A DNA stretch of 64,000 bases from Chitinophagaceae bacterium 26-R-25 (GTDB lineage Bacteria; Bacteroidota; Bacteroidia; Chitinophagales; Chitinophagaceae): contig JARWSJ010000003.1 in assembly GCA_029906195.1 (NCBI GenBank), forward strand, positions 682,001-746,000, read 5' to 3'. This document shows positions 1,398 to 64,000 of this stretch, one piece after another. The position numbers and the translations under genes are program-made. How positions within the stretch are numbered: position 1 is the first letter of the stretch; each line of letters begins with the position of its first letter. The notes beneath the pieces are model-generated. The model did not search any database, was not told the origin of the DNA, and saw only the letters and a list, made by a program, of their open reading frames with translations.

Positions 1398-1475
1398 GTA
1401 GAGACAAGGCATTGCCTTGTCTCTGTTCCACCAAAATTCAAATACGCAAAAGACAAGGCAATGCCTTGTCTCTAC
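1398..1475. repeat. Paired GTAGAGACAAGGCA palindromes
   Basis: Two palindromes face each other across about 27 bases. One has arms GAGACAAGGCA/TGCCTTGTCTC (1401-1423); the other spans 1451-1475. Together they form a larger inverted repeat starting GTAG and ending CTAC. They lie between the convergent ends of the GH3 gene and uvrC, and the TAG stop of uvrC (1474-1472) is part of the element. The same design recurs at 26462-26533 and 35011-35092. Confidence 0.9.
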
Positions 1476-3274
1476 TTGTTAAAATGCTGCCACACAATCT
1501 CTGCCTTTGATTTTCCAACTTCAGCAATTAATTCTTCTTTCGTCAGCGTTTTGATTTTGTTGACAGAACGGAATGTCTTCAATAGCCTGTCAGCAGTAGA
1601 TTTGCCGATGCCTTCAATCGTTTCCAATTCATTTTTAAAAGTGCCTTTGCTTCGTTTGTTTCTGTGAAACGTAATACCAAAGCGGTGCACCTCATCACGA
1701 ATGCGACGGATCAGTTTCAGGCTCTCGCTGTTATAAGGTAGTTTAAGTGACTCGCTATCTCCCGGAAAAAATAGTTCTTCTTCATTTTTCGCAAGTCCCA
1801 CAAGCGTCATCCTTCCAATCAAGCCGAGCTCGTCAATGGCTTGCATAGCATAGCCCAGCTGCCCCTTACCACCATCAATGATCACGAGTTGAGGCAAATC
1901 TTGATTTTCATCCAGCAAGCGCTTATATCGCCTGTAAACAACTTCTTTCATCGTAGCGAAGTCGTTAATGCCCTCAACTGTTTTCACATTGAAGTGTCGA
2001 TAATCTTTTTTACTTGGAATACCGTCCTTGAAACAAACCATAGCAGATACAGGATAACTTCCCTGGAAGTTGGAGTTATCAAAACATTCAATATGCACCG
2101 GGGCCTCCGTAAGCGAAAGATCTTCCTGCAATTGATACAACACCTGCTTCTTTTCAAAATCTGATTTCCCTTCCAGCTGAAGAATTTTCTTTTTCTTCAA
2201 TTCTTCTTTAAAATAGTTCACGTTCTTCTCTGAAAGCTCCAGCAGTTTCTTTTTATCTCCGCCTTTAGGCACAATTATTTCAACAGTATCATCAGGATAT
2301 TCGATCTCAAACGGAACAATAATTTCATGCGCCATGCTATTGAACGTTGAGCGAAGCTGCGCAATGGCAAACTGTAAAACCTCCTGCTCTGGCTCTTCCA
2401 GGTGTGTTTCCAGCTGAATGGTATTGGTTTGAACAACAGTGCCATTTTGAATCATCAGGTAGTTTACATACGCAAGATCTCCGTCTTTCAAAATGCTGAA
2501 AACATCCATGGTTCCAAGGTGCCTGCTCACAATCACGGACTTCGCCTGGTAACTTTCGAGGTGCTCAATTTTTTTGCGCATCATTTCTGCCTTCTCGAAA
2601 GCCATACCTTCCGCATGTGCTTTCATTTGTTGCCTGAATTGCTGCAAAATAGGGCCGAGATTTCCTTTCAGTATATTTTCTATTTGTAACAATCCTGCAT
2701 TGTAATCTTCCAGTGATTGCAAGCCTTCGCACGGACCTTTGCAATTGCCCAAATGATATTCCAGGCACACTTTGAATTTGCCGCGTTTAATATTTGTTTC
2801 AGTAAGATTGAGTTTGCAAGTACGCAGTGGAATATTTTGCTTGATGAATTCAATCAACTCACGCACTCTGCCAACAGAAGTAAATGGCCCGAGGTATTTT
2901 GAACCATCATTTAATTTTCTTCTTGTGAGAAATATTCTTGAAAACGGCTCTCTCTTAATAACAATGAAAGGATAGCTTTTATCATCCTTCAGGTTGATAT
3001 TGTATTTCGGCTGGAACTGTTTGATCAGCGAGTTTTCAAGCAGGAATGCATCCTGCTCGGAATCAACAATGGTAAACTCAATTTTTGTAATGCGCTGAAC
3101 AAGCTCGTGTGTTTTATAGTTGACAAAGGTTTTGGAAAAATAGGAGCTAACACGTTTGCGCAGACTTTTGGCCTTGCCAACATAAATCAGTTCATCTTTA
3201 TTGTCGAAGTATTTGTAAATGCCCGGATTGGTGGGAATTGTATGTGCTATCTGCTGAAACTCACTCGCTGTCAT
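1472..3274 (-). CDS. uvrC: Excinuclease ABC subunit C (UvrC)
   Basis: UvrC makes both incisions around bulky DNA lesions in the UvrABC complex. The 600-residue length is normal. Domains in order: GIY-YIG nuclease at about 16-95 (GIYKYFDNKDELIYVGKAKS); a Cys-containing segment (CLEYHLGNCKGPC, about 170-182); the UVR domain that contacts UvrB at about 200-235; the RNase H-like 5' nuclease with ECFDNSNFQG and VIIDGGKGQLGYA (about 395-480); and a C-terminal helix-hairpin-helix (IEGIGKSTADRLL, about 550-590). The ATG at 3274 sits at the expected N-terminus. The last codons run straight into the palindromic repeat, which supplies the TAG stop. Confidence 0.97.
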   Translation of the reverse strand: MTASEFQQIAHTIPTNPGIYKYFDNKDELIYVGKAKSLRKRVSSYFSKTFVNYKTHELVQRITKIEFTIVDSEQDAFLLENSLIKQFQPKYNINLKDDKSYPFIVIKREPFSRIFLTRRKLNDGSKYLGPFTSVGRVRELIEFIKQNIPLRTCKLNLTETNIKRGKFKVCLEYHLGNCKGPCEGLQSLEDYNAGLLQIENILKGNLGPILQQFRQQMKAHAEGMAFEKAEMMRKKIEHLESYQAKSVIVSRHLGTMDVFSILKDGDLAYVNYLMIQNGTVVQTNTIQLETHLEEPEQEVLQFAIAQLRSTFNSMAHEIIVPFEIEYPDDTVEIIVPKGGDKKKLLELSEKNVNYFKEELKKKKILQLEGKSDFEKKQVLYQLQEDLSLTEAPVHIECFDNSNFQGSYPVSAMVCFKDGIPSKKDYRHFNVKTVEGINDFATMKEVVYRRYKRLLDENQDLPQLVIIDGGKGQLGYAMQAIDELGLIGRMTLVGLAKNEEELFFPGDSESLKLPYNSESLKLIRRIRDEVHRFGITFHRNKRSKGTFKNELETIEGIGKSTADRLLKTFRSVNKIKTLTKEELIAEVGKSKAEIVWQHFNK

Positions 3275-3305
3275 AATATATCAAATGCTTTGCAAATATC
3301 GTTTT

Positions 3306-3545
3306 TTTACCACTAAGGCACTCAGGGCACAAGATTCCACTAAGAGTTTTTTTAACCACGGAGTTAAAGAGTTTTTTTCACAGAGGAAACAGAGAAAGTA
3401 CCTGGAAGTGTTGGCCGCTTATGAATGCTCAGGGGAAAGGAGTATTTGCCACAAACCTCCTTCCCTCTGTGGAAAAACCTCCGTTGCCTCTGTGGTTAAA
3501 AAAACTCTTAGTGGAATCTTGTGCCCTGAGTGTCTTTGTGGTAAA
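3306..3545. repeat. Long inverted repeat of ACCACTAAGG/ACCACGGAG/CACAGAG words
   Basis: The left arm (3306-about 3365) and right arm (about 3481-3545) are inverted copies. A shared core of about 42 bases (CTCAGGGCACAAGATTCC and onward, including seven T) is identical, with only a few mismatches over 56 bases. Further in, the arms continue as weaker CACAGAGG words. The element fills the tandem gap between the uvrC start and the lipoprotein gene end. The same vocabulary occurs at 12610-12763 and as one arm near 42418. Confidence 0.9.
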
Positions 3546-3561
3546 CTCAGAAGCGAAGCTT

Positions 3562-4184: not shown

Positions 4185-4289
4185 GCTAAACGCAGAACGC
4201 TAAACGCTAAACGCAAAACGCAAAACGCAAAACGCCGGGTGCTGCCCACTAAGCGTTAAGCGTTAGGCATCAAGCATTACGCTTAACGC
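4185..4289. repeat. Inverted repeat of AACGC words
   Basis: The left side repeats GCTAAACGC and GCAAAACGC; the right side repeats GCGTTAAGCGTTAGGC and its relatives, the reverse complement of the same words. The TAA stop of the neighbouring minus-strand gene (4285-4283) lies inside the right arm (CGTTAAGC). The same words occur at 13492-13550. Confidence 0.85.
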
Positions 4290-6349: not shown

Positions 6350-6705
6350 GGTATATATTACTCTTCTAATATAGACATTTTTTCTCAAACATAATAGTGG
6401 GGAAACTAGGGTTTTTGGGAAATAGGGTTGTTAGTTGTTGGTTAATAGTTGTTAGGCATTATGTGCGTCAGCCCCTGCCAAAAACTAACAACTAACAACT
6501 GTCAACTAACAACTTAACTTCTCAAGTATCGAAACCATACAACAATCGTATCAAAACCGGACACCGCAAAAACTAAACAGCAATTAACTGGTTATTTATC
6601 AGTTAATTGTAATGGGGCATATTTTTGGGTAAATAAAAATGGATGTTTTTTCAACCGACTGTATTCCCAAAAAATATTACTGTAACCCAAATCAGAATAT
6701 CTTTT
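6350..6705. other. Divergent gap between ECF sigma gene and FtsX-type permease
   Basis: This 356-base gap must hold the promoters of both flanking genes. The only recognisable structure is the GTTGTTAG inverted repeat at 6426-6514. A short imperfect inverted repeat (AATTAACTGGTTA and TCAGTTAATT) lies near 6581-6611. I see no convincing -33/-7 pair. Confidence 0.5.
6426..6514. repeat. Inverted repeat of GTTGTTAG words
   Basis: The left arm (GTTGTTAGTTGTTGG, then TTAATAGTTGTTAG) and the right arm (CTAACAACTAACAACTG, then TCAACTAACAAC) pair with a few mismatches around a loop of about 28 bases. The same words form the inverted repeat at 18789-18862 and a single right arm at 15570-15599. Confidence 0.85.
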
Positions 6706-9093
6706 ATGCTTAAGAACTATTTTAAACTGGCATGGCGAAATCTGGTTAAAAGCAAAGTGTATTCGCTGATCAATGTGCTTGGCCTGGCCACAGGAATGGC
6801 AGTTGCCATGCTGATTGCACTATGGATATCGGATGAAGTAACGTTTGACCGGTACCATTCCAACCATAAGGAGCTGGCCCAGATAATGACCACTTTTGTC
6901 GATAACGACGGTAAAATGGCAACCGGGCCCGCAGTTTGCCTGCCAATAGGCAATGAATTACGAACCAAGTACGGAAGCGACTTCAAAAGTATTTCCATGG
7001 CATCCTGGAACTTCGACCACATTCTGGTGGTTGGAGATAAAAAGATCACTTCAAAGGGTATGTGGGTTGAAGGCAGTTTTCCCACCATGTTTTCATTGAG
7101 ATTATTGAAAGGAAATATTAATGCTTTGGACGACCCTTCCGCAATTCTGCTCAATGCATCTACCGCAACATCACTTTTTGGAGATGCCGATCCAATCAAC
7201 AAAATGCTGCGACTTGACAATAAGGATAATTACAAAGTGGCTGGTGTTTTTGAAGATCTTCCGCGCAATACAAGTTTAAATGATGTAAAGCTTTTTCTGC
7301 CATGGAAAAAATACATAACAACTGAAGATTGGATAAAACGTGCAAACACACAATGGAACAACCACTCATGGCAGGTGTATGTGCAGGTGGCGAATAAAAT
7401 AGACATGGACAAGGAGACTCAAAAGATCAGGAACATTGTGATGGACCATAAGGTGGCCGCTACCGACGGAAAGGAGCAGGCTGTACTATTTCCTATGGAT
7501 AAATGGAGGCTTTACAGCGAATTTAAAGATGGCAAGGCCGCCGGAGGTAAAATACAGTTTATCTGGTTGTTTGCGGTAATAGGTGTTTTTGTGTTGCTGC
7601 TGGCTTGCATCAATTTTATGAATCTTTCAACAGCTAGAAGCGAGAAAAGAGCAAAAGAAGTGGGCATTCGTAAAACGGTGGGTTCTGTGCGCGGACAGTT
7701 GATAGGTCAGTTTTTGGCGGAGTCAGTTTTGGTGGCCTTTGTGTCCCTGATATTTTCGCTTATTCTCGCTGCAGTGTTAATGCCGCTTTTCAACAGGCTT
7801 GCAGAGAAAAGTATTTTTTTGCCTTTGGGCAATCCCATCTTTTGGTTACTGATCATTGTGTTCACTTTAATTACAGGATTGGTTTCCGGAAGCTATCCTG
7901 CGTTCTATCTTTCCAAATTTGAGCCCATCAAAGTATTGAAAGGAACATTCCGCGTGGGAAGGTTTGCATCATTACCACGCAAGGTGCTGGTAGTTGTGCA
8001 GTTCACTTTTTCGATAGCATTGATCATAGGAACCATCATTATTTTCAAACAGATTCAATACGCGAAAAACAGACCCGTAAATTACAGGAGCGAAGGGCTT
8101 ATCACCATCAATATGTCCACCCCGGATCTGTATGGCCATTACGACGCCATACGAAGTGATCTGCTGGCTACCAATGTGGTGGACAACATGGCTGAATCAT
8201 CAAGCCCAACAACAGATGTATGGTCGAATCAAATAGGTTTCAGCTGGCAGGGGAAAGACCCCAACACATTGCCGGCTTTTGGCACCATAGCTGTAACCGA
8301 AGATTTTGGAAACACCATTGGCTGGAAAGTCAAAGAGGGCCGAGATTTTTCTAAGCAATTTGCCACTGATAGTTTGGCAATGGTATTAAATGAAGCCGCT
8401 GTAAAACTAGTTGATATGAAGCGTGAGATCGTTGGAGAAACGATAAAATTCAATGACAAAAATTATACGGTAATAGGCGTCGTAAAAGATATGATCATGG
8501 AATCACCCTACACTCCGGTGAAACCAACAGTATTCTTCTTTAACCGCGAATGGGCAAATGTTATCACAGTCGCCATAAAACAATCAGTGCCCGTTCGTGA
8601 TGCATTGAATAAAATTGAAACGGTGTTCAAAAAATACAATCCTTCTTCACCATTTGCTTATAAATTTAATGACGAGGAATACATGCGAAAATTTGCTGAC
8701 GAACAACGCATAGGAAAACTCGCAACATTTTTTACCATACTCGCCATCTTCATTTCATGCCTTGGTTTGTTTGGCCTTGCTTCATTTGTAGCAGAACAAC
8801 GTAAAAAGGAAATTGGCGTTCGCAAAGTGCTTGGTGCATCAGTCTTCAATTTGTGGCAGTTGTTGTCAAAAGAATTTGCACTACTCGTAGCGATTTCCTG
8901 CGTCATTGCTATTCCGTTGGCGTGGTATTATTTAAACAGCTGGTTGCAACGTTTTGACTACCGAACAAACATTCCGTTCTGGATTATAGTTGCCTCGGGA
9001 ACCGGCGCGTTGGTTATAACCCTTATCACCGTTAGCTTCCAGGCAATTAAAGCAGCGTTGGCAAATCCCGTGAAGAGTTTGAGAACTGAATAA
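6706..9093 (+). CDS. MacB/FtsX-type ABC transporter permease
   Basis: I chose the ATG at 6706 (MLKNYFKLAWRNLVKSK), the standard N-terminus of this Bacteroidota family; it gives 795 residues. The first transmembrane helix is at about 20-42. A periplasmic MacB-type domain follows, then an FtsX core at about 285-410 (INFMNLSTARSEKRAKEVGI), a second periplasmic domain, and a second FtsX core at about 670-790 (GLASFVAEQRKKEIGVRKVL). No ATP-binding domain is present, so it needs a separate ATPase. Such proteins couple ATP hydrolysis in the cytoplasm to movement in the periplasm; the substrate is unknown. It stands alone here. Its TAA stop runs directly into TTTGAAAA words. Confidence 0.93.
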   Translation: MLKNYFKLAWRNLVKSKVYSLINVLGLATGMAVAMLIALWISDEVTFDRYHSNHKELAQIMTTFVDNDGKMATGPAVCLPIGNELRTKYGSDFKSISMASWNFDHILVVGDKKITSKGMWVEGSFPTMFSLRLLKGNINALDDPSAILLNASTATSLFGDADPINKMLRLDNKDNYKVAGVFEDLPRNTSLNDVKLFLPWKKYITTEDWIKRANTQWNNHSWQVYVQVANKIDMDKETQKIRNIVMDHKVAATDGKEQAVLFPMDKWRLYSEFKDGKAAGGKIQFIWLFAVIGVFVLLLACINFMNLSTARSEKRAKEVGIRKTVGSVRGQLIGQFLAESVLVAFVSLIFSLILAAVLMPLFNRLAEKSIFLPLGNPIFWLLIIVFTLITGLVSGSYPAFYLSKFEPIKVLKGTFRVGRFASLPRKVLVVVQFTFSIALIIGTIIIFKQIQYAKNRPVNYRSEGLITINMSTPDLYGHYDAIRSDLLATNVVDNMAESSSPTTDVWSNQIGFSWQGKDPNTLPAFGTIAVTEDFGNTIGWKVKEGRDFSKQFATDSLAMVLNEAAVKLVDMKREIVGETIKFNDKNYTVIGVVKDMIMESPYTPVKPTVFFFNREWANVITVAIKQSVPVRDALNKIETVFKKYNPSSPFAYKFNDEEYMRKFADEQRIGKLATFFTILAIFISCLGLFGLASFVAEQRKKEIGVRKVLGASVFNLWQLLSKEFALLVAISCVIAIPLAWYYLNSWLQRFDYRTNIPFWIIVASGTGALVITLITVSFQAIKAALANPVKSLRTE

Positions 9094-9303
9094 ATTTGAA
9101 AATTTGAAGATTTGAAGATTTGAAAATGGGAGCTGCAGATTGGTGAATTAAGAATTAGTAATTAGGAATTAAGAATTGCCGGGTGTGCCAGCTAGCTGTA
9201 AAATAACTAAGCCGTATACTAATTATAAAAAAAGGTCTGACAGCTTTTTGTAAGCACTGTCAGACCTTTCAAATTCTTAATTCTTAATTCCTAATTCTTA
9301 ATT
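9094..9303. repeat. Composite inter-gene element: TTTGAAAA words, then AATTAGG inverted repeat enclosing a terminator
   Basis: From left to right: TTTGAAAA/TTTGAAGA words directly after the permease stop (9096-9126); an arm of AATTAAGAATTAG words (about 9146-9176); a GC-rich terminator hairpin (9231-9269); and the inverted arm of AATTCTTAATTCC words (about 9271-9303). That last arm runs into the TAA stop of gpmI at 9304-9302. The flanking genes converge. Confidence 0.88.
9231..9269. terminator. Bidirectional intrinsic terminator between permease and gpmI
   Basis: A perfect 13-bp stem, AAAGGTCTGACAG with CTGTCAGACCTTT, encloses a 13-base loop (CTTTTTGTAAGCA). It has A residues before and T residues after, and lies between convergent genes. 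It sits in the loop of the larger AATTAGG inverted repeat. Confidence 0.85.
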
Positions 9304-11576: not shown

Positions 11577-11733
11577 AATTAGGAATTAGAAATTAGGAAT
11601 TAGGAATTAGGAATTAGTTGGCGTGCTTGCTACCAGACATTGATCATACTTGGCTTGTCGGCGAGATAGTGTTTCGTCACCGGGTGTGACACAGAAAAAA
11701 ATTCCTAATTCCTAATTCCTAATTCCTAATTTC
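11577..11733. repeat. Inverted repeat of AATTAGG words
   Basis: The left arm repeats AATTAGGAATTAG (11577-11617) and the right arm repeats AATTCCTAATTCC (11699-11733). The loop is about 80 bases and holds no gene. The right arm abuts the -7 element of nadC. Confidence 0.9.
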
Positions 11734-11741
11734 TATTTTTG
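11734..11741 (+). promoter_or_regulatory. -7 element of nadC promoter
   Basis: TATTTTTG fits the Bacteroidota -7 consensus TAnnTTTG and ends 4 bases before the nadC ATG, so transcription would start at or next to the AUG. The -33 region falls inside the AATTCCTAATTCC arm and has no TTTG. Confidence 0.55.
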
Positions 11742-12609: not shown

Positions 12610-12763
12610 TTTTTAACCACGGAGGAAAGGAGTTTTTTCACAGAGAGAACGGAGGCTGCTCCAAAAAAAGTGTAGCATCCGAGAGCATCGAGGGAAGAAG
12701 GAGTGTTTCACAAATCTCCTTACCTCTGTGAAAAAAATCTCCGTTGCCTCTGTGGTTAAAAAA
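12610..12763. repeat. Inverted repeat of ACCACGGAGG/CACAGAG words
   Basis: The left arm (12610-about 12655: TTAACCACGGAGGAAAGGAG, then CACAGAGAG) pairs with the right arm (about 12716-12763: CTCTGTGAAAAAAATCTCCG, then CCTCTGTGGTTAA) around a loop of about 60 bases. It follows nadC and precedes the SUI1 gene. Confidence 0.9.
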
Positions 12764-13476: not shown

Positions 13477-13491
13477 CTTCTGCTTAATGCC

Positions 13492-13550
13492 TAAGGCTTA
13501 ACGCTTAACGCGGCGACCTTGCGTTTGGCGTTTAGCGTTTAGCATTTTGC
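13492..13550. repeat. Inverted repeat of AACGC words
   Basis: The left arm GCTTAACGCTTAACGC pairs with the right arm GCGTTTAGCGTTTAGC (plus GCGTTTG) around a short loop. It is the same vocabulary as 4185-4289. Confidence 0.8.
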
Positions 13551-13680
13551 ATTCGCCACTCATTCCCGGTTGAAATCCCTTCTCACACGGTAGTTTTCAA
13601 CAATAGCATTTTCAAAAGGCGAAAAATTTATAACTTGCGTCAAGTCATGTTTATTTCTGTTTTTTTTCGCTAAGGAAACT

Positions 13681-15468: not shown

Positions 15469-15599
15469 TGTACGAAGTACGATGTACGGTGTACGACATT
15501 CTTTTGAGTGTCACACTGTAACGCATTTTGTACACCGTACACCGTACACCGTACACTGCATTTTGGTTCTAACAACTATCAACTAACAACCAACAACTT
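15469..15599. repeat. GTACGATGTACGG inverted repeat followed by a CAACTAACAAC arm
   Basis: The left arm (15469-15497, GTACGATGTACGGTGTACG) is inverted at 15529-15556 (TGTACACCGTACACCGTACA). Then comes a lone right arm of the GTTGTTAG vocabulary (15570-15599), 3 bases before the pump start codon. It lies inside the efflux operon. Confidence 0.85.
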
Positions 15600-18922: not shown

Positions 18923-20368
18923 ATGAAAAAAAACAAAAACATACATTTTTATATAGCCGCACTGGGATTTATGATTTTCGTAGTGTCCTGCGCACCATCG
19001 CGCAACACAGGCGTGCCCGATAAAGTAGAGGTTGCCGATTCACTTTTTCACACAACAGATAGTACAAGCATTGCAACGATAAAATGGAAGGATTTTTTCA
19101 AAGATCAATACTTACAACGCATCATTGACAGCACTTTGAGAAACAACCAGGATATTTTGATTGCAGCGCAAAGAGTAGAAGTAGCAAGGGCAAATTTAAT
19201 GATGGCAAGAGCTGCCTTTCAACCCACGGTAAACGGTGTGGTAAGCGCTGCCGCAGATCGTTATGGCGACTACACAATGAATGGCGTGGGAAATTTTGAT
19301 ACGAACTTATCGCCCAACATTTCTAAAGATCAAAAAATTCCGACACCTGTAACACCCGATTACTTTATCGGATTCAGAAGCACCTGGGAAATTGACTTAT
19401 GGGGCAAACTGAAGAATAAAAAGAAAGCTGCATTGGCAAGATTTGCCGCATCTGAAAAAGGCAGACAAATGCTCAGCACTTTTCTCGTTGCAGAAATCAG
19501 TTCGTTATACTACGAGCTCCTGGCGCTGGATAATGAACTGAAGATTATTGAAAGGAATACCAAACTACAGGAATCTGCTTTGGATGTAGTAAGAATTCAA
19601 AAGGAAGGAGGACGTGCTACAGAGCTTGCTGTGAAACAGTTCCAGGCACAGGTATACAACACGAAAAGTTATGAGTATGCCATCAAGCAGGAAATTGGAG
19701 CAGTAGAAAACCAGATCAGTTATTTGATGGGCGGCTATCCCAAACATATCGAACGCGATACAATCATTACAGGGCAAGAGTTTCCTGATCAATTGCTAAC
19801 AGGCGTTCCGTCTGCCATGTTGTTGCGCCGACCAGACATCCGCGAAGCAGAATTGCAACTCATCGCCGCGAAAGCTGATGTAGATGCTGCAAGAGCCGCA
19901 TTCTTGCCGTCGCTTACCATCAATCCTTACCTTGGATTAAACAGCTTTGGTGCGGGTCTGCTCTTCAATGGGGGTTCTTTTGTGTATGGCATTTTGGGAG
20001 GTTTAACAACGCCGGTTTTTAATCAGCGTCAATTGAAGGCTAACCACATTATAAGTGTCGCAGCAAATAAAGAGGTGTATTACAGCTATCATAAGACAAT
20101 TACAAATGCAACGCGTGAAGTGCTCACAACATTGAACAACATCGATAACGGAAAAAAGATGCTGTCCCTAAAGCAACAGGAAGCGCAGGAGTTGACAGAC
20201 GCCGTGTCGTCTGCACAAGATCTATATGTGTCTGGTTATGCTACCTATCTTGAAATCATCACCGCACAAAAAAGCGTATTGGAAGCCGAGTTGCAAAAGA
20301 ACGAGCTCAGGAAGAATTTGTACATGTCGTCAATTGGCTTGTACAGAATGTTGGGCGGCGGTTGGTAG
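18923..20368 (+). CDS. TolC/NodT-type outer-membrane efflux lipoprotein
   Basis: A 481-residue outer-membrane channel subunit that completes the tripartite efflux system. The lipobox VVSC (Cys about residue 24) gives a lipid anchor. Two outer-membrane-efflux repeats follow: first ADSLFHTTDSTSIATIKWKD and the long helices to about 230, then LLRRPDIREAELQLIAAKAD (about 300) to the end (YMSSIGLYRMLGGGW). Its TAG stop is the first TAG of the following GTAGAGACGCG palindrome. Confidence 0.95.
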   Translation: MKKNKNIHFYIAALGFMIFVVSCAPSRNTGVPDKVEVADSLFHTTDSTSIATIKWKDFFKDQYLQRIIDSTLRNNQDILIAAQRVEVARANLMMARAAFQPTVNGVVSAAADRYGDYTMNGVGNFDTNLSPNISKDQKIPTPVTPDYFIGFRSTWEIDLWGKLKNKKKAALARFAASEKGRQMLSTFLVAEISSLYYELLALDNELKIIERNTKLQESALDVVRIQKEGGRATELAVKQFQAQVYNTKSYEYAIKQEIGAVENQISYLMGGYPKHIERDTIITGQEFPDQLLTGVPSAMLLRRPDIREAELQLIAAKADVDAARAAFLPSLTINPYLGLNSFGAGLLFNGGSFVYGILGGLTTPVFNQRQLKANHIISVAANKEVYYSYHKTITNATREVLTTLNNIDNGKKMLSLKQQEAQELTDAVSSAQDLYVSGYATYLEIITAQKSVLEAELQKNELRKNLYMSSIGLYRMLGGGW

Positions 20369-20560
20369 AGACGCGTTGAACGCGTCTCTCTGGCACCCAA
20401 AATATGCAAATATATATGGCGCATGTTCGCGCCGTTTTGGAAACATCATGCGGGGTGTTACGGAGACGCATTCAATGCGTCTCTACGTTCGCCTTGGTTC
20501 GTGTCTTCACGAACCGAAATGCGCGGCTTGATTGTTCGTTGGTTCGTGGGGACACGAACC
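20365..20560. repeat. GTAGAGACGCG palindrome pair plus two GGTTCGTG palindromes
   Basis: Four hairpins: GTAGAGACGCGTT with its inverse (20365-20389); GGAGACGCATT with its inverse (20462-20486); GGTTCGTG-TCTT-CACGAACC (20496-20515); and GGTTCGTG-GGGA-CACGAACC (20541-20560). The first two are variants of the GTAGAGAC family and face each other. The element occupies most of the 315-base gap between convergent genes, and I see no gene in the rest. Confidence 0.9.
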
Positions 20561-20930: not shown

Positions 20931-21043
20931 AAATGACTGAATAATTGAAATTAACCTCATTAAAGTTACTCAATTATTCAGTCATTATATTATCCGATCA
21001 ACCTTCAGTTAATCAGTTATTCAGTTAATCAGTTATTCGATTA
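20931..21043. repeat. CTGAATAA-word inverted repeat plus extra word arm
   Basis: AAATGACTGAATAATTGA (20931-20948) is inverted at 20970-20986. A further arm of CAGTTATTCAGTTAATCAG words (21007-21043) reaches into the TAA stop of icd (21043-21041). Gap between two minus-strand genes. Confidence 0.85.
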
Positions 21044-22749: not shown

Positions 22750-23136
22750 ATGGTAAGCAAGATATCAGAAGGTATAGAAATAAGTGTAGAGACCTTTTAT
22801 CAGCCGGACTACTCAAACCCAATGTCCGCTGAGTTTATGTTTGCTTATCGTATCAGCATTGAAAACCACAATAATTTCCCCGTTCAGTTACAGCGCCGCC
22901 ACTGGCATATTTTCGACAGCAATGGCCAATACCGTGAGGTAGAAGGCGAGGGCGTTGTTGGTGTACAACCTACACTTAATCCCGGCGAACGCTATCAATA
23001 TGTAAGTGGCTGCAATCTCCGCACCGAAATGGGCAAAATGTACGGCACCTACTCCATGCTAAATCTCAGCAATAAAAGAGCTTTTGATGTGAACATTCCA
23101 GCGTTTGAAATGATCGTTCCATTTAAACACAATTAA
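22750..23136 (+). CDS. apaG: ApaG-family protein
   Basis: 128 residues with the single DUF525/ApaG fibronectin-like domain. Characteristic segments are FMFAYRISIENHNNFPVQLQ, RHWHIFDSNGQYREVEGEGV, VGVQPTLNPGERYQYVSGC and MYGTYSMLN. In enterobacteria ApaG is linked to Co2+/Mg2+ efflux phenotypes; its biochemical role is not settled. It is monocistronic, divergent from icd, and ends at a bidirectional terminator. Confidence 0.95.
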   Translation: MVSKISEGIEISVETFYQPDYSNPMSAEFMFAYRISIENHNNFPVQLQRRHWHIFDSNGQYREVEGEGVVGVQPTLNPGERYQYVSGCNLRTEMGKMYGTYSMLNLSNKRAFDVNIPAFEMIVPFKHN

Positions 23137-23138
23137 GT

Positions 23139-23223
23139 ATTAGGAATTAGGAGTTAGGAATTAGGAATTAGAAGGGCTAGTCGTGGAGAAGACTTCAGTT
23201 ATTCAATTATTCAGTTATTCAGC
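23139..23223. repeat. Unpaired arms of two vocabularies (AATTAGG, then TTATTCAG)
   Basis: After apaG comes an arm of TTAGGAATTAGGAGTTAGG words (23139-23173), a spacer of about 23 bases, then an arm of CAGTTATTCAATTATTCAG words (23194-23223). Neither arm has its own inverse here, so this looks like a hybrid of two element types. The terminator at 23228 follows directly. Confidence 0.8.
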
Positions 23224-23227
23224 TTAT

Positions 23228-23266: not shown

Positions 23267-23283
23267 TATAATGTCTCGACAAT

Positions 23284-26461: not shown

Positions 26462-26533
26462 GTAGAGACAAGGCACCGCCTTGTCTTGGTAATTCCGAAA
26501 TTCGCAAGAGACAAGGCATTGCCTTGTCTCTAC
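26462..26533. repeat. Paired GTAGAGACAAGGCA palindromes
   Basis: The first palindrome (26462-26486) and second (26507-26533) face each other across about 20 bases, as at 1398-1475. It begins 7 bases after the purD stop and ends 15 bases before the kynA ATG. Confidence 0.9.
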
Positions 26534-27610: not shown

Positions 27611-27770
27611 GAATTTGAAAATTTGAAAATATCGGAATTTGAAAATTCTTTCTGAGTAACTTTTCATTTTCAAAAAAGGCTCTTCAATGTACGGGAGCAA
27701 AGAATAGGTTCAAAAGTAGGCGCCTAAAGCGTTTTCAAATTTTCAAGTCCTCAAATTTTCAAATTGAAAA
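27611..27770. repeat. Inverted repeat of TTTGAAAA words
   Basis: The left arm (27611-27647, GAATTTGAAAATTTGAAAAT and relatives) pairs with the right arm (27732-27770, TTTTCAAATTTTCAAG, then CCTCAAATTTTCAAATTG) around a loop of about 84 bases. Confidence 0.88.
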
Positions 27771-28974: not shown

Positions 28975-28981
28975 ACTACAG

Positions 28982-29068
28982 AAATTAGGAGTTAGGAGTT
29001 AGGAATTAGAAATATGTAAGCTAGCTCCTCGCTCCTAATTTCTAATTCCTAGTTCCTAATTTCTAATA
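28982..29068. repeat. Inverted repeat of AATTAGG words inside the mre cluster
   Basis: The left arm (28982-29012, AATTAGGAGTTAGGAGTTAG) pairs with the right arm (29032-29068, CTCCTAATTTCTAATTCCTA) around a loop of about 20 bases. It fills almost the whole mreB-mreC gap. Confidence 0.88.
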
Positions 29069-30463: not shown

Positions 30464-30552
30464 AAACTGAAAAACTGAAGTCAAAAGTTAAAAGTAAAAA
30501 GTCAAAATTGGGGCTCACGATTTTTGACTTTTGCCTTTTGAATTTTGATTTG
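30461..30552. repeat. Inverted repeat of GTCAAAAG words
   Basis: The left arm begins at the mreD stop and repeats AAGTCAAAAGTTAAAAG (to 30507). The right arm (about 30520-30552) repeats TTTTTGACTTTTGCC and relatives. The loop is about 12 bases. The same vocabulary occurs at 53922, 57855 and 59537. Confidence 0.85.
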
Positions 30553-35010: not shown

Positions 35011-35092
35011 GTAGAGCCAAGGCACTGCCTTGGCTTTTGAAATATTGAAATTCATTATGTTCGAGAGACAAGGCAGTGCCTTGTCTCTACTA
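35011..35092. repeat. Paired GTAGAGMCAAGGCA palindromes
   Basis: The first copy is a variant (GTAGAGCCAAGGCACTG and inverse, 35011-35035); the second is AGAGACAAGGCAGTG and inverse ending CTAC (about 35064-35090). Read on the minus strand, the phosphatase ends TTT-TAG-TAG, where the second TAG belongs to the element and the first abuts it. Confidence 0.9.
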
Positions 35093-38600: not shown

Positions 38601-38655
38601 ATGCACGGCACGAAAGTTTTAGTGAATAATATCGTCTAAACTGTGAGACAAGTAA

Positions 38656-38750
38656 TTGAATAACTGAGTAACTGAATAACTGAGTGGTTGAATTATAAAT
38701 GCCTTTTCCAATATAAGCCATTCAGTTATTCAGTTACTCAGTTATTCAGT
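38656..38750. repeat. Inverted repeat of CTGAATAA words
   Basis: The arms at 38656-38687 and 38718-38749 match over 32 bases with two mismatches (words TGAATAACTGAGTAACTGA). The loop is 30 bases. It stands between the ECF operon terminator and the barrel protein gene. Confidence 0.9.
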
Positions 38751-38767
38751 TCTTAAGACAAGAAATT

Positions 38768-42353: not shown

Positions 42354-42616
42354 TAGGAATTAGGAGTTAGGAATTAGGAGTTAGGAATTAGAGATTGTTT
42401 GAGCCGCAAATATTTACCACTAAGGCACTAAGCGCACTAAGTTTCACTAAGAGAGAATGCAGAACCTTAGAAACAAAAAGTACGATGTCCGAAATACATC
42501 AGAGTATAACCTCCTAATGACTTTCGTACATCGTACCTCGTACACCGTACATATTTTCTCAGGTTCTCAGCACAAAAAGAATTCTTAATTCTTAATTGCT
42601 AATTCCTAATTGATTA
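42351..42616. repeat. Nested composite element: AATTAGG arms around ACCACTAAGG words and a GTACGATG inverted repeat
   Basis: The outer left arm (42354-42390, TAGGAATTAGGAGTTAGG) is inverted at 42584-42612 (AATTCTTAATTCTTAATTGC, then TAATTCC). Inside are one arm of ACCACTAAGGCACTAAG words (about 42418-42453) and an inverted repeat AAGTACGATGTCCG (about 42478) with ACATCGTACCTCGTACACC (about 42526-42552). Both flanking convergent stop codons touch the outer arms. Confidence 0.88.
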
Positions 42617-43757: not shown

Positions 43758-43765
43758 CAAAGTTA
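43758..43765 (-). promoter_or_regulatory. -7 element of mqnC promoter
   Basis: On the minus strand TAACTTTG matches TAnnTTTG, 19 bases before the mqnC ATG. The -33 region falls in the adjacent TTTGAAAA repeat arm and is not clear. Confidence 0.55.
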
Positions 43766-43772
43766 AAGACAT

Positions 43773-43924
43773 CAATTTGAAAATGTGGTAATTTGAAAAT
43801 TTGAAAATTAGGTTTTTGAGGTAAAGTCCTGAAAACTGCACGAACAGCTTGTGAGATAACCATTTTTTACGCAGTCCGACAGAATGAATTTTCAAATTTT
43901 CAAATCGTCAAATTTTCAAATTGT
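43773..43924. repeat. Inverted repeat of TTTGAAAA words
   Basis: The left arm (43773-43811, CAATTTGAAAATGTGG and TAATTTGAAAATTTGAAAAT) pairs with the right arm (43886-43924, AATTTTCAAATTTTCAAATC and GTCAAATTTTCAAATTG). The loop is about 74 bases. Confidence 0.88.
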
Positions 43925-44105
43925 TGAAATTAACATTAACAGTTCGTTTTAAAACTAATTTTCGTTAATTACAATTAATGCGAGATATTCACGTTGTAGT
44001 TAACAATAAGATCACATTGTGAGCGCATTAGCTTACTGATTGCCTGTAAAAGTTTAACATATGATTTTTATTAACAATGTTATGTGTTAATCAAGCCATT
44101 TGGAT

Positions 44106-48273: not shown

Positions 48274-48277
48274 TAAT

Positions 48278-48374
48278 AACTGAATAACTGAATGACTGAA
48301 TAACTGAGTGTTAGATTCGATTTCGCACTATAATTATCGGCCACTCAGTTATTCAGTCATTCAGTTATTCAGTT
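48278..48374. repeat. Perfect 33-bp inverted repeat of CTGAATAA words
   Basis: The left arm 48278-48310 (begins AACTGAATAACTGAATGACT) is an exact reverse complement of the right arm 48342-48374, with a 31-base loop. It starts 4 bases after the helicase stop and ends 1 base before the mnmD ATG, so it is the whole intergenic region. Confidence 0.95.
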
Positions 48375-48375
48375 T

Positions 48376-49056: not shown

Positions 49057-49059
49057 TGG

Positions 49060-49258
49060 CACACAGATGACGCAGATTTGACTGATTTGCACTGAAATTT
49101 TCTGAACTTACTTGACAGTTGATTAACAGTTAAAATAAAGAGAGAAGGTTGAACAAATCGTTCAACCTTCTCTCTTTATGCGGTTTGAAATTAATATGAG
49201 TCTATGTACTTTAAAAAAAATCTGTGTAAATCAGTCCAATCCGTGTCATCCGTGTGCT
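49060..49258. repeat. Inverted repeat of CACAGATGACGCAGATT words around a terminator
   Basis: The left arm (49063-49104, GGCACACAGATGACGCAGAT, then TGACTGATTTGCACTG) pairs with the right arm (49213-49258, CAGTCCAATCCGTGTCATCC, then GTGTGC). The loop holds a perfect 20-bp hairpin (49135-49179). Convergent genes lie on either side. The same vocabulary occurs at 61281-61420. Confidence 0.9.
49135..49179. terminator. Bidirectional intrinsic terminator between mnmD and feoB
   Basis: A perfect 20-bp stem: 49135-49154 (ATAAAGAGAGAAGGTTGAAC) is inverted at 49160-49179, with a 5-base loop AAATC. It lies in the middle of the larger word-type inverted repeat. Confidence 0.85.
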
Positions 49259-51411: not shown

Positions 51412-51451
51412 CAGGTGAAAAAGTTACTGATTGTTACGAAATCGGGAAGAG

Positions 51452-51690
51452 AGGACGCAGATTTTCATGATTGTCATGATTTTGATGATTTTTTATGGGA
51501 AATGCCGGGCTGGAGGACGGGTTTGTTGTAATCGTTTTATTTGTTGCACAGTCATGACGTCGATCTACAGGTTGCGGCTTACAAGACCTGACAGGATTTC
51601 GAAACCTGTCAGGCCCCGGTGCAGCACCTAAAGCCTTGCCCGTAAAAAAAATCACAACAAATCATGACAATCATGAAAATCTGCGTTCTT
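51452..51690. repeat. GACGCAGATTTTCATG inverted repeat with nested CCTGACAGG palindrome
   Basis: The left arm (51452-51500, AGGACGCAGATTTTCATGAT and onward) pairs closely with the right arm (51638-51690, ending ATCATGAAAATCTGCGTTCT). In the loop, CCTGACAGG (51587-51595), ATTTCGAAA, CCTGTCAGG (51605-51613) form a near-perfect 27-base palindrome. Confidence 0.9.
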
Positions 51691-51733
51691 TTTTATGCGT
51701 CCGGTCGTTAATTTTATATACAAATCCAATTAC

Positions 51734-57857: not shown

Positions 57858-57992
57858 TGCGAAGTCAAAAGGAAAAAGTCAAAAGACTTTGGTGTGTCTA
57901 TCTGTAATTTTTTAAAAACCAAGCGACAAAAAAGCTATTTGACCCCGGCACTGGCAGCGAGTTTTGAATTTTGAATTTTCACTTTTGACTTA
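57855..57992. repeat. Inverted repeat of GTCAAAAG words
   Basis: The left arm begins at the TAA stop of the fusion gene (TAATGCGAAGTCAAAAGG, then AAAAAGTCAAAAG). The right arm (57961-57992) reads GTTTTGAATTTTGAATTTTC, then ACTTTTGACTTAA. Confidence 0.85.
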
Positions 57993-58024
57993 ATTCGTGT
58001 CTTGCTGTCAAAATTAAAATAAGA

Positions 58025-59527: not shown

Positions 59528-59536
59528 TGCAAATAA

Positions 59537-59620
59537 ATAAAAAATCAAAATTCAAAAGTCAAAAATTTTGATGCAACATGGTCCTGAGATTTTGACTTTT
59601 GAATTTTTACTTTTGATTTC
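59537..59620. repeat. Inverted repeat of GTCAAAAG/TTCAAAAG words
   Basis: The left arm (AAAAATCAAAATTCAAAAGT, then CAAAAATTTTG) pairs with the right arm (59588-59620, GATTTTGACTTTTGAATTTT, then TACTTTTGATTTC) around about 16 bases. It ends 2 bases before the next ATG. Confidence 0.85.
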
Positions 59621-59622
59621 AG

Positions 59623-61293
59623 ATGAAGATAATAAAGAAGATATTCAAGATACTCGCTTACACCCTACTGGTGTTAGTTATTATGTTACTCGCAGGATTT
59701 ACCTATCTCGTGATTGTAGCCAAAGAACCGAACCCTAAAATAAGTGATGCAAATGTTGAGGCACTACAGAGGACGGAGAAAGATGGTTTGTATTACATCG
59801 GCAACAGCTGGTTTCGTAGGAGCAAAAGTGGTTTGTATGAAATGTATGTGGAAGGAGAACCCTTTGAGCGCGGAGTGGTCAATGGTAAGCTGTCAAAGGA
59901 ATTAATACAAAGACAAGAAGATGTTTTTGTGGGCCAGATAAGGAAAATGATTCCGTCTACTTTTTATTTGCATTTTCTCAAATACTTCATAGGTTGGTTT
60001 AACCGTGATCTCGCAAAGAATGTAACGGAAGAATACAAAGAAGAAATTTATGGTGAGTCGCTGGCGGCATCAACGGAGTATGATTATATAGGCACGAACT
60101 ATCAGCGCATTTTGAATTATCACGCGGCGCATGATATAGGGCACGCGTTGCAAAGCATGGCTCTTGTGGGTTGTACATCGTTTGGCACGTGGGGTGATGC
60201 GTCTGCTGATAGCACCATGATCATTGGAAGAAACTTTGATTTTTACATGGGCGATCAATTTGCAGAAGACAAGATCGTTTCATTTACAAATCCATCTCAG
60301 GGCCATAAGTTCATGACGGTGACCTGGGGCGGCTTTATTGGTGCGGTTTCCGGCATGAATGACCAGGGGCTTACCGTAACCATCAATGCAGACAAAACAG
60401 CGATACCCTCAGGCTCTGCAACACCCGTTTCCCTGGTGGCAAGAGAAATTTTGCAGTATGCAAAAAACATCGAGGAAGCTTATGCCATTGCATCGAAGAG
60501 AAAAATGTTTGTATCGGAAGCCTTCCTTGTTGGCTCTGCTGTCGATAATAAAGCAGTGATCATTGAAAAGACTCCCGAGCAATTGGCAATGTATGATCCA
60601 AAGAAAAATTACATTCTTTGTGCCAATCATTTTCAAAGTGATTTGTTGGGGCAAACGAAAGAAAACAAGGAGCAGATGGAAAAAAGCGCATCTGTTTACC
60701 GCTATGAAAGATTGACAGAGCTGATGCAAAATAACGGCCCGAACACAGTTCAAAAGACCATCAATATTCTGCGTGATCAGAAAGGTTTGCACGGCGCGAA
60801 TATTGGAATGGGAAATGAGAAGGCGATCAATCAGCTGATAGCGCATCACTCCATTGTTTTCGAACCGCAGAAAAGATTGGTATGGGTTTCTACTTCGCCA
60901 TGGCAGTTGGGTCAGTTTGTGTGTTATGATTTGAACAAAGTATTTGCCATGCATGGCATGAAAGAAAACCATGAAATAGTTGATAGCGCATTAACCGTGC
61001 CTGCAGACAGTTTTATATCGACAAGTGCGTTCAAAGATTTTGTGTTGTACAGAAGTTATAAGCAACGCGTTGCAGATAAAGAAAGTATTAACATTGACAG
61101 CCTTATTACAAGCAATCCCGAATATTATCACACTTATGTAATTGCCGGAGATTACTTGTTCAAACAAAAAAACTTTGCAAAAGCAAAAGAAGAATACACA
61201 GTCGCATTAACCAAAGTGATTGCAACAAAACAGGAAGAAGAACATATACGCAGGCAGATTGCGAAGTGCGACGAGGAATTGGCACGCAGATGA
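59623..61293 (+). CDS. C45-family autoproteolytic acyltransferase/hydrolase
   Basis: 556 residues. An N-terminal signal anchor (about 8-30) places the enzyme in the periplasm. The Ntn-hydrolase core has the expected nucleophile Cys in MALVGCTSFGTWGD (Cys about 184), followed by MIIGRNFDFYMGDQFAEDK and MNDQGLTVTINADK. Related enzymes (acyl-CoA:6-APA acyltransferase, peptidase C45) self-cleave before the Cys and transfer or remove acyl groups. A TPR-like helical tail (about 490-556) is extra. C45 proteins recur in flexirubin clusters. The last three codons and the stop (GCA CGC AGA TGA) lie inside the following repeat. Confidence 0.9.
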   Translation: MKIIKKIFKILAYTLLVLVIMLLAGFTYLVIVAKEPNPKISDANVEALQRTEKDGLYYIGNSWFRRSKSGLYEMYVEGEPFERGVVNGKLSKELIQRQEDVFVGQIRKMIPSTFYLHFLKYFIGWFNRDLAKNVTEEYKEEIYGESLAASTEYDYIGTNYQRILNYHAAHDIGHALQSMALVGCTSFGTWGDASADSTMIIGRNFDFYMGDQFAEDKIVSFTNPSQGHKFMTVTWGGFIGAVSGMNDQGLTVTINADKTAIPSGSATPVSLVAREILQYAKNIEEAYAIASKRKMFVSEAFLVGSAVDNKAVIIEKTPEQLAMYDPKKNYILCANHFQSDLLGQTKENKEQMEKSASVYRYERLTELMQNNGPNTVQKTINILRDQKGLHGANIGMGNEKAINQLIAHHSIVFEPQKRLVWVSTSPWQLGQFVCYDLNKVFAMHGMKENHEIVDSALTVPADSFISTSAFKDFVLYRSYKQRVADKESINIDSLITSNPEYYHTYVIAGDYLFKQKNFAKAKEEYTVALTKVIATKQEEEHIRRQIAKCDEELARR

Positions 61294-61420
61294 CGCAGAT
61301 TGGACTGATTTTCACTGATTTTTTTGTATGTTGAAAATCATCGCAATCTTGCTACTGTGTGCTTGATAAGAAGATTGTTTTTTTGAAAAAATCAGTTTAA
61401 TCAGTGTCATCTGTGTGCGC
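61281..61420. repeat. Inverted repeat of GCACGCAGATGACGCAGATT words, overlapping the C45 gene end
   Basis: The left arm (61281-61324) includes the C45 stop codon and the three codons before it. The right arm (61385-61420) reads AAAAAATCAGTTTAATCAG, then TGTCATCTGTGTGCGC. The loop is about 60 bases. The gap separates the C45 gene from acpS. Confidence 0.92.
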
Positions 61421-61440
61421 AAAGCATAAAAAGCAAAACC

Positions 61441-61812: not shown

Positions 61813-61814
61813 TT

Positions 61815-63104: not shown

Positions 63105-63107
63105 TCG

Positions 63108-63287
63108 GAATTTGAAAATTTGAAAATTTGAAAATTTGAGAATTCATTCTGTGTGGCTTTGCTCATTAGCCATTGGCCTTCCAATTGTTTCAATTGAATT
63201 GATTAGAGTTGTGAAGCCAAATTTCTTTTTTGTAACACTGCACCGTCAGAATTTTCAAATTCCCATATTTTCAAATTTTCAAATTGC
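63108..63287. repeat. Inverted repeat of TTTGAAAA words
   Basis: The left arm (63108-63146) repeats AATTTGAAAATTTG; the right arm (63249-63287) repeats ATTTTCAAATTCCCAT and ATTTTCAAATTTTCAAATTG. The loop is about 100 bases. The TGA stop of lutB (63281-63279) lies inside the right arm. Confidence 0.9.
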
Positions 63288-64000
63288 CTTATTTTGCTTC
63301 CAAAGCTCGTTAAAAGTTTTTGAGGAAAAGTCCAAATCTGCGCGCTCTGTCGTCCAGCCTTTGAAGACTTTATTCACCATCCAGTTTTTCATTTTTTTAT
63401 TGCCCATGTTCATCATGCTGCGGTGAAGGCTGGCTTGCTTCCACATTTTCCAGGCTACTCTTTCGCCCCATGAAGCATCACCTTCTTCAACGGACTCATA
63501 CCTGTTTTCAAGCAGCAATTCGTGGAGATTGATTTTAACGGCACAGACTTCCGTACAGTTACCGCAAAGAGAAGATGCATAGCTCAAATGTTTCCACTCG
63601 TTCATTTCTTTTAAATGCGGAGTAATCACAGAACCGATCGGCCCGCTGTAAGTGGTTTCGTAGCTGTGGCCGCCAATATTTTTATAAACAGGACACGCGT
63701 TGAGGCAGGCGCCGCAACGAATGCAGTAAAGGCTTTCGCGTGTTTTAGGATTGGCCAGCAAATTGGTGCGGCCATTGTCAAGCAAGATCACATACATTTC
63801 TTCAGGGCCATCCGTTTCGCCTTCCTGGCGCGGACCTGAAACGATGGTATTGTAAGAAGTAACTTTTTGGCCCGTCCCAAAAGTGGCCAGTAGCGGCCAG
63901 AAAAGACCAAGGTCTGCCATCGAAGGAATAACTTTTTCTATCCCCACAATTACAATATGTGTTTTCGGCCATCCACAGCTTAATCTTCCGTTTCCTTCAT
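63279..64000 (-). CDS. lutB: Lactate utilization protein B (LutB-like), C-terminal part
   Basis: The frame stays open to the window edge, so the first part is missing; 239 residues are visible (…EGNGRLSCGWPKTHIVIVGI). LutB is an iron-sulfur subunit of the LutABC L-lactate dehydrogenase. Two 4Fe-4S-type motifs are present: CIRCGACLNACPVY and CGNCTEVCAVKINLHELL. LVNEGNGR-type and GIEKVIPSMADL segments belong to the LUD domain. The last codon before TGA (ATT) and the stop itself are part of the TTTGAAAA repeat arm. Confidence 0.93.
   Translation of the reverse strand, partial: EGNGRLSCGWPKTHIVIVGIEKVIPSMADLGLFWPLLATFGTGQKVTSYNTIVSGPRQEGETDGPEEMYVILLDNGRTNLLANPKTRESLYCIRCGACLNACPVYKNIGGHSYETTYSGPIGSVITPHLKEMNEWKHLSYASSLCGNCTEVCAVKINLHELLLENRYESVEEGDASWGERVAWKMWKQASLHRSMMNMGNKKMKNWMVNKVFKGWTTERADLDFSSKTFNELWKQNKAI

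What the first reader, a model, noticed from the sequence alone, without database searches (positions are those of the whole stretch)
1398..63289. About thirty intergenic inverted repeats built from about ten recurring word vocabularies
Nearly every tandem or convergent gap holds a hairpin whose arms consist of 7-14 base words repeated with small changes. The arms of one element match each other, while different loci use different vocabularies. Each vocabulary recurs at unlinked loci: GAATTAGG (9146, 11577, 28982, 42354), CTGAATAA (20931, 38656, 48278), TTTGAAAA (27611, 43773, 63108), GTCAAAAG (30461, 57855, 59537), GTTGTTAG (6426, 18789), AACGC (4185, 13492), ACCACGGAG (3306, 12610), GATGACGCAGATT (49060, 61281), GTACGATG (15469, 42478). 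The 5' arm always uses the same strand of the word, never its complement. No protein that could move them is in the window. Candidates are a family of non-autonomous elements, a DNA-uptake or packing signal, or a terminator/insulator system produced by slippage plus arm correction.
Basis: partly seen in the sequence, partly recalled or inferred. Interest (0 to 1): 0.88.

Follow-up and report, generated by a model that had tools for sequence, protein, structure and literature searches.

The report
Swappable, flipping hairpin repeats between genes
The gaps between this soil bacterium's genes hold many families of short mirror-image repeats whose arms are stuttered seven-to-nine-letter words, and related species often carry a different family, or the same one with its middle turned around, at the very same spot.

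Summary
The repeats are real: a 264-kb block holding the window has 76 intergenic inverted repeats, against 0 in shuffled gaps and 0 in 181 kb of coding DNA. The genome shares its genus with two Pinibacter species (Chitinophagaceae). At least a dozen families exist; most have head-to-head arms built of a family-specific 7-9-nt word (F-R 273, R-F 3). They crowd stop codons and convergent gaps. Against the two sister species: occupied gaps stay occupied (46 of 61 versus 18 of 87); 13 of 56 gaps hold different families, six unambiguously; loops lie inverted at 8 of 55 same-family loci; word dialects expand by species (TTGAGAG 164/661/30). Arm changes are compensated more often than chance, and 23 of 62 elements have relatives elsewhere that include the loop. 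I read them as many families of non-autonomous miniature elements that spread as units and whose arms pair as DNA hairpins. They work like REPINs and resemble the paired heptamer arrays of Xanthomonas. The mobiliser is unproven: one RAYT lineage lies between TTTGAAAA elements in both sisters, but 18 of 515 ordinary genes do too. New variant of a known kind.

The parts
1398..1475 (.). GTAG-type palindrome doublet (GTAGAGACAAGGC); GTAG also in G001, a CGCAAAGG element in G002
3301..3550 (.). Nested element: CACTAAGG outer arms round an ACCACGGAG element; inner part inverted relative to G001
4185..4282 (.). AACGC element; same gap holds a CTGAATAA element in both sisters, and its first 11 nt (TAACTGAATAA) remain here
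6426..6514 (.). GTTGTTAG element
9092..9127 (+). Unpaired TTTGAAAA array (absent in both sisters)
9146..9303 (.). AATTAGG element; AATTAAT words in both sisters, loop homologous to that of G001: word change in place
11577..11738 (.). AATTAGG element; AATTAAT words in G001, only a remnant in G002
12610..12763 (.). ACCACGGAG element; a GTGAATGG-type element in G001
13480..13555 (.). AACGC element
15469..15555 (.). GTACGATG element; family members at other loci share the loop
18789..18862 (.). GTTGTTAG element
20365..20486 (.). GTAG-type palindrome doublet (GTAGAGACGCG)
20931..20987 (.). Short CTGAATAA element, with an unpaired array at 21004-21038
23131..23227 (.). Hybrid: AATTAGG 5' array, CTGAATAA 3' array
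26462..26533 (.). GTAG-type doublet; GTACGATG words in G002
27612..27765 (.). TTTGAAAA element
28980..29067 (.). AATTAGG element
30478..30551 (.). GTCAAAAG element; TTGAAAG-like words in both sisters
34078..34260 (.). Hybrid: TTGAAA 5' array, AATTCCT 3' array
35011..35090 (.). GTAG-type palindrome doublet
38654..38751 (.). CTGAATAA element
42354..42609 (.). AATTAGG arms round a CACTAAGG half-element and a GTACGATG element
43759..43937 (.). TTTGAAAA element
48278..48374 (.). CTGAATAA element with perfect 33-bp arms; G002 has an extra base at matching places in both arms
49059..49257 (.). GATGACGCAGATT element; about 1 kb with two short reading frames lies between the arms in G001
51447..51694 (.). 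CATGATT element
57864..57997 (.). GTCAAAAG element; AATTAAT element in both sisters, loops unrelated
59535..59619 (.). GTCAAAAG element
61282..61418 (.). GATGACGCAGATT element
63109..63285 (.). TTTGAAAA element; loop inverted relative to G002 (weakest of the eight, z 4.7)

Best explanation
These are at least a dozen families of non-autonomous miniature inverted-repeat elements (about 60-250 bp) that have multiplied in one genus of Chitinophagaceae. Each unit has two head-to-head arms, in most families three to five copies of a family-specific 7-9-nt word, around a loop of family-typical length. SHOWN: they are intergenic, far above chance, dispersed, crowd stop codons and avoid start codons; arms are better conserved than loops; changes in one arm are matched in the other more often than expected; loops lie inverted between species at some loci; a site can keep an element but change its family. 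INFERRED: whole units copy to new gaps; the arms fold as DNA hairpins or cruciforms, and template switching in that structure both corrects the arms and flips the loop; insertion next to or inside a resident element followed by loss of its arms makes the same-site swaps. UNKNOWN: the mobilising enzyme. A host RAYT (HUH single-strand transposase) acting on the folded strand, or replication alone, are the two options I rank first.
For: Dispersal: 1,010 AATTAGG matches; 23 of 62 elements with loops >=40 nt have a non-self match over >=70% of the loop (in several the match is a second element nested in the loop); same-family loops at different loci match in 30 of 300 sampled pairs, different-family loops in 4 of 300. 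Species-specific expansion: TTGAGAG 164/661/30, AATTAAT 203/584/321, AATTAGG 1010/596/341 in G000/G001/G002. Same-site exchange: 13 of 56 gaps with repeats in at least two species hold different families by automatic assignment; six are unambiguous (-183804, -118403, -108483, -76971, -48164, 1390), and the -183804 swap is exact at the left edge. Flanks of swapped sites are no more diverged than others (0.914 versus 0.914 in G001, 0.878 versus 0.879 in G002). DNA pairing: 8 of 55 same-family loci have an inverted loop in at least one comparison; compensated double changes 12 against about 1 expected (G001) and 4 against 0.8 (G002); arm identity 0.925 and 0.912, loop 0.800 and 0.758. Placement: 3.37 repeats per kb of convergent gap, 1.47-1.82 tandem, 0.91 divergent; arms start within 10 nt of or inside the end of a gene at 167 of 330 stop edges (uniform placement 108), and within 10 nt at 19 of 242 start edges (38).
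Against: Only one clean empty site for a word-arm element was found (-107739), and no target-site duplication is evident there. The whole-genome search with one swapped-in element found 70 other places, nearly all ending at the arm; only one reached most of the loop, at 75%. So recent copies with near-identical loops were not seen in the window's genome. Nested pairs by strict word match are few (5 nested, 4 side by side, 0 interleaved among 281 elements). An element re-inserted the other way round would also look like a flip; same-family loops at unrelated loci match inverted in 16 of 300 pairs. Many arms are not strictly periodic (45 of 76).
Confidence: 0.62

Rival explanations
1. The word-arm elements are REPINs in the strict sense: a RAYT of the host cuts and moves them as single-stranded hairpins.
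For: RAYT genes exist: open frames of 179-187 aa with HxH and the NP-x-R/K-x-G motif in G000 (L149), G001 (L158, L160) and G002 (L148). In G001 the L158 gene lies between two TTTGAAAA elements that are 134 of 141 identical, loop included, and its G002 counterpart L148 also has TTTGAAAA words on both sides. A CATGATT element or array lies at the stop-codon side of the other RAYT in all three species.
Against: 18 of 515 genes of similar size are bracketed just as closely by arrays of one family. The own genome has no L158-type gene yet has 342 TTTGAAAA matches, against 517 and 326 in the sisters. Word arms lack the GTAG or CGTC tag and are not palindromic within an arm. A dozen families would have to share two RAYT lineages. 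The L149, L153 and L160 genes also have GCAAGGCT palindromes beside them, which fit the REP definition better.
Confidence: 0.27
2. They are selected 3'-end hairpins: transcription terminators, insulators or mRNA stabilisers, and sequence turns over while the hairpin is kept.
For: Stop-codon crowding and convergent enrichment; arms more conserved than loops, compensatory changes; a gap keeps an element although its family changes.
Against: 14 of 286 have >=6 T in the 8 nt after the 3' arm (no null made). They also occur in 34 of 97 divergent gaps, and 15 of 61 occupied gaps are empty in G001. Shared words at unlinked loci need copying whatever the function.
Confidence: 0.25
3. No mobility: each hairpin arose on the spot by slippage of a short word and fold-back copying.
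For: Periodic arms (31 of 76 versus 1 shuffled); in-place word changes with a retained loop (9094, -36161).
Against: The same words at hundreds of loci, and loop similarity between loci.
Confidence: 0.08
4. The arms are written by a reverse transcriptase from an RNA template.
For: Word arrays resemble templated repeats (resemblance only).
Against: RVT_1 (PF00078) has four matches in the own genome and none in G001 or G002, which carry the same families. Other reverse-transcriptase models were not searched.
Confidence: 0.02

Closest known systems
Paired GGGAATC heptamer arrays of Xanthomonas and GGGGA(C/T)T of Nostoc (PMC4692102; sections 10 and 16 read)
   Same: [quoted passage not shown] 70 and 75 cases of convergent array pairs forming inverted repeats; between the same genes in two species with varied sequence.
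   Different: One G-rich word per genome there, at least a dozen mostly AT-rich words here; family exchange at a site, loop inversion and compensated arm changes are not in the sections read.
REPINs / REP-BIME with RAYT (PMC3116915, PMC2817692, PMC8266576, PMC3733652; abstracts, outlines or passages seen)
   Same: Intergenic inverted doublets with conserved arms, less conserved spacers of set length, compensatory changes, hairpin in single-stranded DNA.
   Different: Arms here are word arrays, not tagged palindromes; no family-specific RAYT shown. True GTAG doublets coexist in the window (1398, 20365, 26462, 35011).
TAACTGA direct repeats of Beggiatoaceae, Cyanobacteria and some Bacteroidetes (PMC4679880; abstract and one section read)
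   Same: A closely similar word (TAACTGA versus TAACTGAA), intergenic, up to several units.
   Different: There mostly direct arrays upstream of start codons; here head-to-head pairs beside stop codons.
MITEs, e.g. BrickBuilt of Porphyromonas with an internal minisatellite (PMC4596501; abstract seen)
   Same: Short, intergenic, non-autonomous, inverted ends, in Bacteroidota, combined with tandem units.
   Different: BrickBuilt has a 23-nt tandem core with small inverted ends and 19 copies in one strain; here the arms themselves are the arrays and copies are far more numerous.
Small inversions in hairpin loops of chloroplast DNA (recalled; only listings seen)
   Same: A loop between short inverted repeats found in either orientation in related genomes.
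   Different: Plastid, isolated cases; here dispersed bacterial families.

Membership tests
REPIN / REP doublet (word-arm families) | Two inverted copies of a REP around a spacer, hairpin-forming, intergenic, high copy | tested here: met
   (inverted doublets, family-typical spacing), for word arms in place of REPs
REPIN / REP doublet (word-arm families) | Each arm is a palindrome tagged GTAG or CGTC | tested here: not met
   by reading the arms: word families lack the tag and are tandem arrays; only the GTAGAGAC families have it
REPIN / REP doublet (word-arm families) | Cognate RAYT flanked by the same repeats | tested here: inconclusive
   TTTGAAAA on both sides of L158 and L148 RAYTs; base rate 18 of 515; family just as common without that gene
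MITE | Non-coding, short, terminal inverted repeats, high copy | tested here: met
MITE | Target-site duplication | tested here: inconclusive
   one clean empty site, none evident
MITE | Related autonomous transposon with the same ends | not tested
   45 window ORFs show no mobility protein in Pfam; genome-wide only Y1_Tnp and RVT_1 were searched
Xanthomonas-type paired heptamer arrays | Tandem 7-nt arrays paired convergently within a gap near the gene end | tested here: met
   (units of 7, 8 or longer)
Xanthomonas-type paired heptamer arrays | G-quadruplex-capable G-rich word | tested here: not met
   words such as AATTAGG, CTGAATAA, TTTGAAAA have no G-tract of three
Intrinsic terminator | Stem followed by a T-run | tested here: not met
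   14 of 286 (no null made)

The most novel reading that the evidence does not exclude
A multi-family population of 'word hairpins' that needs no dedicated transposase: folded arms act as template and primer during replication, so words spread to and through other gaps, arms of one unit are kept alike, loops flip, and gene ends serve as durable docking sites that are re-occupied by competing families.
Probability: 0.18. Interest if true: 0.87.

Novelty: new variant of a known kind. Interest (0 to 1): 0.6.

Why it matters
Few genomes let one watch a dozen competing repeat families occupy, nest in, replace and flip at the same gaps across three syntenic species. It offers a test bed for how tandem arrays become inverted pairs, whether RAYTs move anything other than REPs, and whether hairpins fold in bacterial DNA often enough to invert their loops. 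It also warns that gap comparisons between species can be comparisons of different elements. Extrapolating 286 repeats in 1.044 Mb, about 1,800 may exist in the 6.5-Mb genome (my arithmetic).

Tried and rejected
Common core motif inside loops of different families, which I thought I saw by eye: the k-mer enrichment showed only family-specific words. Rejected.

'Arms shared, loops private': my reading. Corrected.

Loops of swapped sites as retained old loops: not supported, 32 of 36 comparisons unrelated in either direction; one direct and one inverted G0-G1 match, one direct each in G0-G2 and G1-G2.

Long-range pairing of arms round cargo: beyond 250 nt F-R does not exceed R-F (12 versus 54).

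All-frame translation stops as a function of the 5' arm: mean 1.96 frames with a stop against 1.65 shuffled (G0). Marginal, dropped.

Import of swapped gaps by recombination with a divergent lineage: no raised flank divergence; short or equidistant tracts are not excluded.

Spread to viruses or plasmids: exact CTGAATAA hairpin pattern 0 in viral contigs; 48270-48379 no match in plasmids. Only this family was tried.

Recheck showed this was wrong; some searches were then made and the RAYT rival was raised to 0.27.

Controls that do not help: the backwards control is uninformative for AATTAAT and TTGAGAG (mirror-like words) and for part of the word lists (e.g. AATTAGG list 79 arrays, reversed control 48).

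Rows dropped: 52 of 179 gaps not mapped in all three species; gaps whose sister gap was unmapped or over 1,500 nt; loops under 18-20 nt. Gene models are from my own simple codon-score script, not an established gene finder.
Full report
What the window is. The window is G000:C3:682001-746000 of a 6.51-Mb genome in six contigs. G001 and G002 are given as the same genus.

Is it there. Yes. An inverted-repeat scan (exact 8-mer seed, ungapped, score >=16, arms within 320 nt) of the gaps of a 264-kb block found 76, 75 and 57 repeats in the three species. Three dinucleotide shuffles of every gap gave 0, 1 and 0 in total, and 181-189 kb of coding sequence gave none. In 1.044 Mb of the own genome there are 286, in 238 of 605 gaps of >=40 bp. 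Stretches of 20 other Bacteroidota (295 kb in all, seven of them short) gave 14, about one per 20 kb against 5.8 here. Two of those genomes show word-like arms of their own (G055, G081), so the kind is not unique to Pinibacter.

Anatomy. Words are family-specific: AATTAGG, AATTAAT, CTGAATAA, TTTGAAAA, TTGAAAG, TTGAGAG, GTCAAAAG, GTTGTTAG, AACGC, CCACGGAG, CACTAAGG, GATGACGCAGATT, CATGATT, GTACGATG, GTGAATGG and others. Arrays of one family less than 250 nt apart are head to head 273 times and tail to tail 3 times. Loop length is family-typical: median 38 for CTGAATAA, 99 for AATTAGG, 111 for TTTGAAAA. The 5' arm is purine-rich in 79% of repeats (G0). About 40% of arms are strictly periodic (31 of 76, shuffled 1). 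Palindromic families of another build (GTAGAGAC, GCAAGGCT, CATCCCGAGG, GGCTTCGACAAGC) occur beside them.

Placement. Repeats per kb of gap: 3.37 convergent, 1.82 and 1.47 tandem, 0.91 divergent. Of 330 stop-codon edges, 167 have the arm within 10 nt or running into the gene end (108 if elements were placed at random in their gaps); of 242 start-codon edges, 19 (38 expected). Words contain stop codons, and some genes appear to end inside an arm (by eye).

Comparison of species. Against G001, 46 of 61 occupied gaps are occupied, but only 18 of 87 gaps without a repeat (Fisher p 4e-11; with gaps of 80-300 bp only, 31 of 43 versus 10 of 39). Against G002 it is 30 of 58 versus 11 of 82. Of 127 gaps mapped in all three species, 54 have none, 17 have a repeat in one species, 38 share a family, 5 differ by a related word, and 13 hold different families. 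Of these 13 I regard six as unambiguous; the rest involve nesting (-107154, -96673, -16163), non-word palindromes (-88366, -78940, -34502) or a doubtful assignment (-105284). Two more swaps below the score threshold were read by eye (4162, 57858). The extended block adds further ones (e.g. -278775, -255371, -228320). At -183804 the own genome has a CATGATT element where both sisters have a GATGACG element, beginning at the same base after GAATGG. Flanks of swapped gaps are as similar as those of others.

Flips. Comparing loops of same-family elements at the same gap: direct 31, inverted 6, neither 3 (G0-G1); 9, 5, 10 (G0-G2); 20, 1, 11 (G1-G2). Eight of 55 loci are inverted in at least one comparison, two of them in the window (3275-3561 and, weakly, 63105-63278). 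As a control, loops of different families at different loci match in 4 of 300 sampled pairs, and same-family loops at different loci in 14 direct and 16 inverted of 300. The flips at -165987 and -213723 are 24 of 27 and about 22 of 26 identical (my count), the level expected of true orthologues. Since same-family loops elsewhere match inverted in about 5% of pairs, a replacement by another copy cannot be excluded for the weakest case.

Arms. Between G0 and G1 (39 elements), 12 paired positions changed on both sides and still pair, 3 changed on both sides without pairing, and about 1 compensated change is expected; G0-G2 (19 elements) has 4, with 0.8 expected. Arm identity is 0.925 and 0.912, loop identity 0.800 and 0.758, gene flank 0.914 and 0.878. 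Word changes in place with a retained loop are seen at 9094 and -36161.

Spread. Whole-genome match counts differ by species: AATTAGG 1010/596/341, AATTAAT 203/584/321, TTGAGAG 164/661/30, TTTGAAAA 342/517/326, CATGATT 288/180/169, GTAGAGACAAGGC 109/129/84. Outside the genus, 17 of 56 relatives had AATTAGG matches, at most 45, and 6 of the other genomes in a 296-genome phylum sample had CTGAATAA matches, at most 8. Whole-element relatives: 23 of 62. The swapped-in element at -183804 aligns over its whole length, loop included, with one at -43156 that G001 also has. A whole-genome search with that element's 5' arm and loop found 70 other places, nearly all stopping at the arm.

What could move them. 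None of 45 window ORFs has a mobility domain in Pfam, and Rfam finds nothing in the window. Y1_Tnp proteins: the own genome has one broken IS200-like gene and one RAYT (L149); G001 has two RAYTs (L158, L160) and G002 one with the motif (L148) plus a likely one without it (L153). L158 lies between two TTTGAAAA elements 134 of 141 identical, and L148 has the words on both sides; a CATGATT element or array lies beside L149, L153 and L160. But 18 of 515 comparable genes are bracketed by one family just as closely, and the own genome, without an L158-type gene, has as many TTTGAAAA matches as G002. RVT_1 is absent from both sisters.

Judgement. The best account is a crowd of non-autonomous miniature inverted-repeat families, REPIN-like in behaviour, whose arms pair as DNA. 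The architecture of paired heptamer arrays is in print for Xanthomonas (PMC4692102). I did not find a description of multiple word families, same-site exchange or loop flips in the papers seen; the paper searches were made, in an open-access library only.

Noticed in passing
L158 (G001:C10 near 57,149) and L148 (G002:C11 near 608,157): A RAYT gene lying between TTTGAAAA elements in both sister species; the two G001 copies are 134 of 141 identical, loop included.
   Followed up: partly
window 49059-49257; G001 counterpart: In G001 about 1 kb with two short reading frames sits between the arms of this GATGACG element; absent in the window and G002.
   Followed up: no
L180:969-1050: A Candidatus Taylorbacteria MAG contig has one CTGAATAA-type hairpin between two tandem reading frames.
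   Followed up: partly
L255 (G081), L254 (G055): Other Bacteroidota show inverted repeats with word-like arms of their own (CACGAATGTACACGAATT, CACAAAGTGCACAAAGG).
   Followed up: no
G000:C1:1715410-1715755 (L144): An IS200-type Y1 transposase gene of the own genome is broken by stops and frame changes; open ones exist in the sisters.
   Followed up: no
window 23219-23271: A plain terminator-like hairpin (AAAAAAAGAGGCGATG...CATCGCCTCTTTTTT) next to a hybrid word element, suggesting that termination and word hairpins are separate features.
   Followed up: no
G000 versus G001, G002: The own genome has four RVT_1 matches; the two sisters have none.
   Followed up: no
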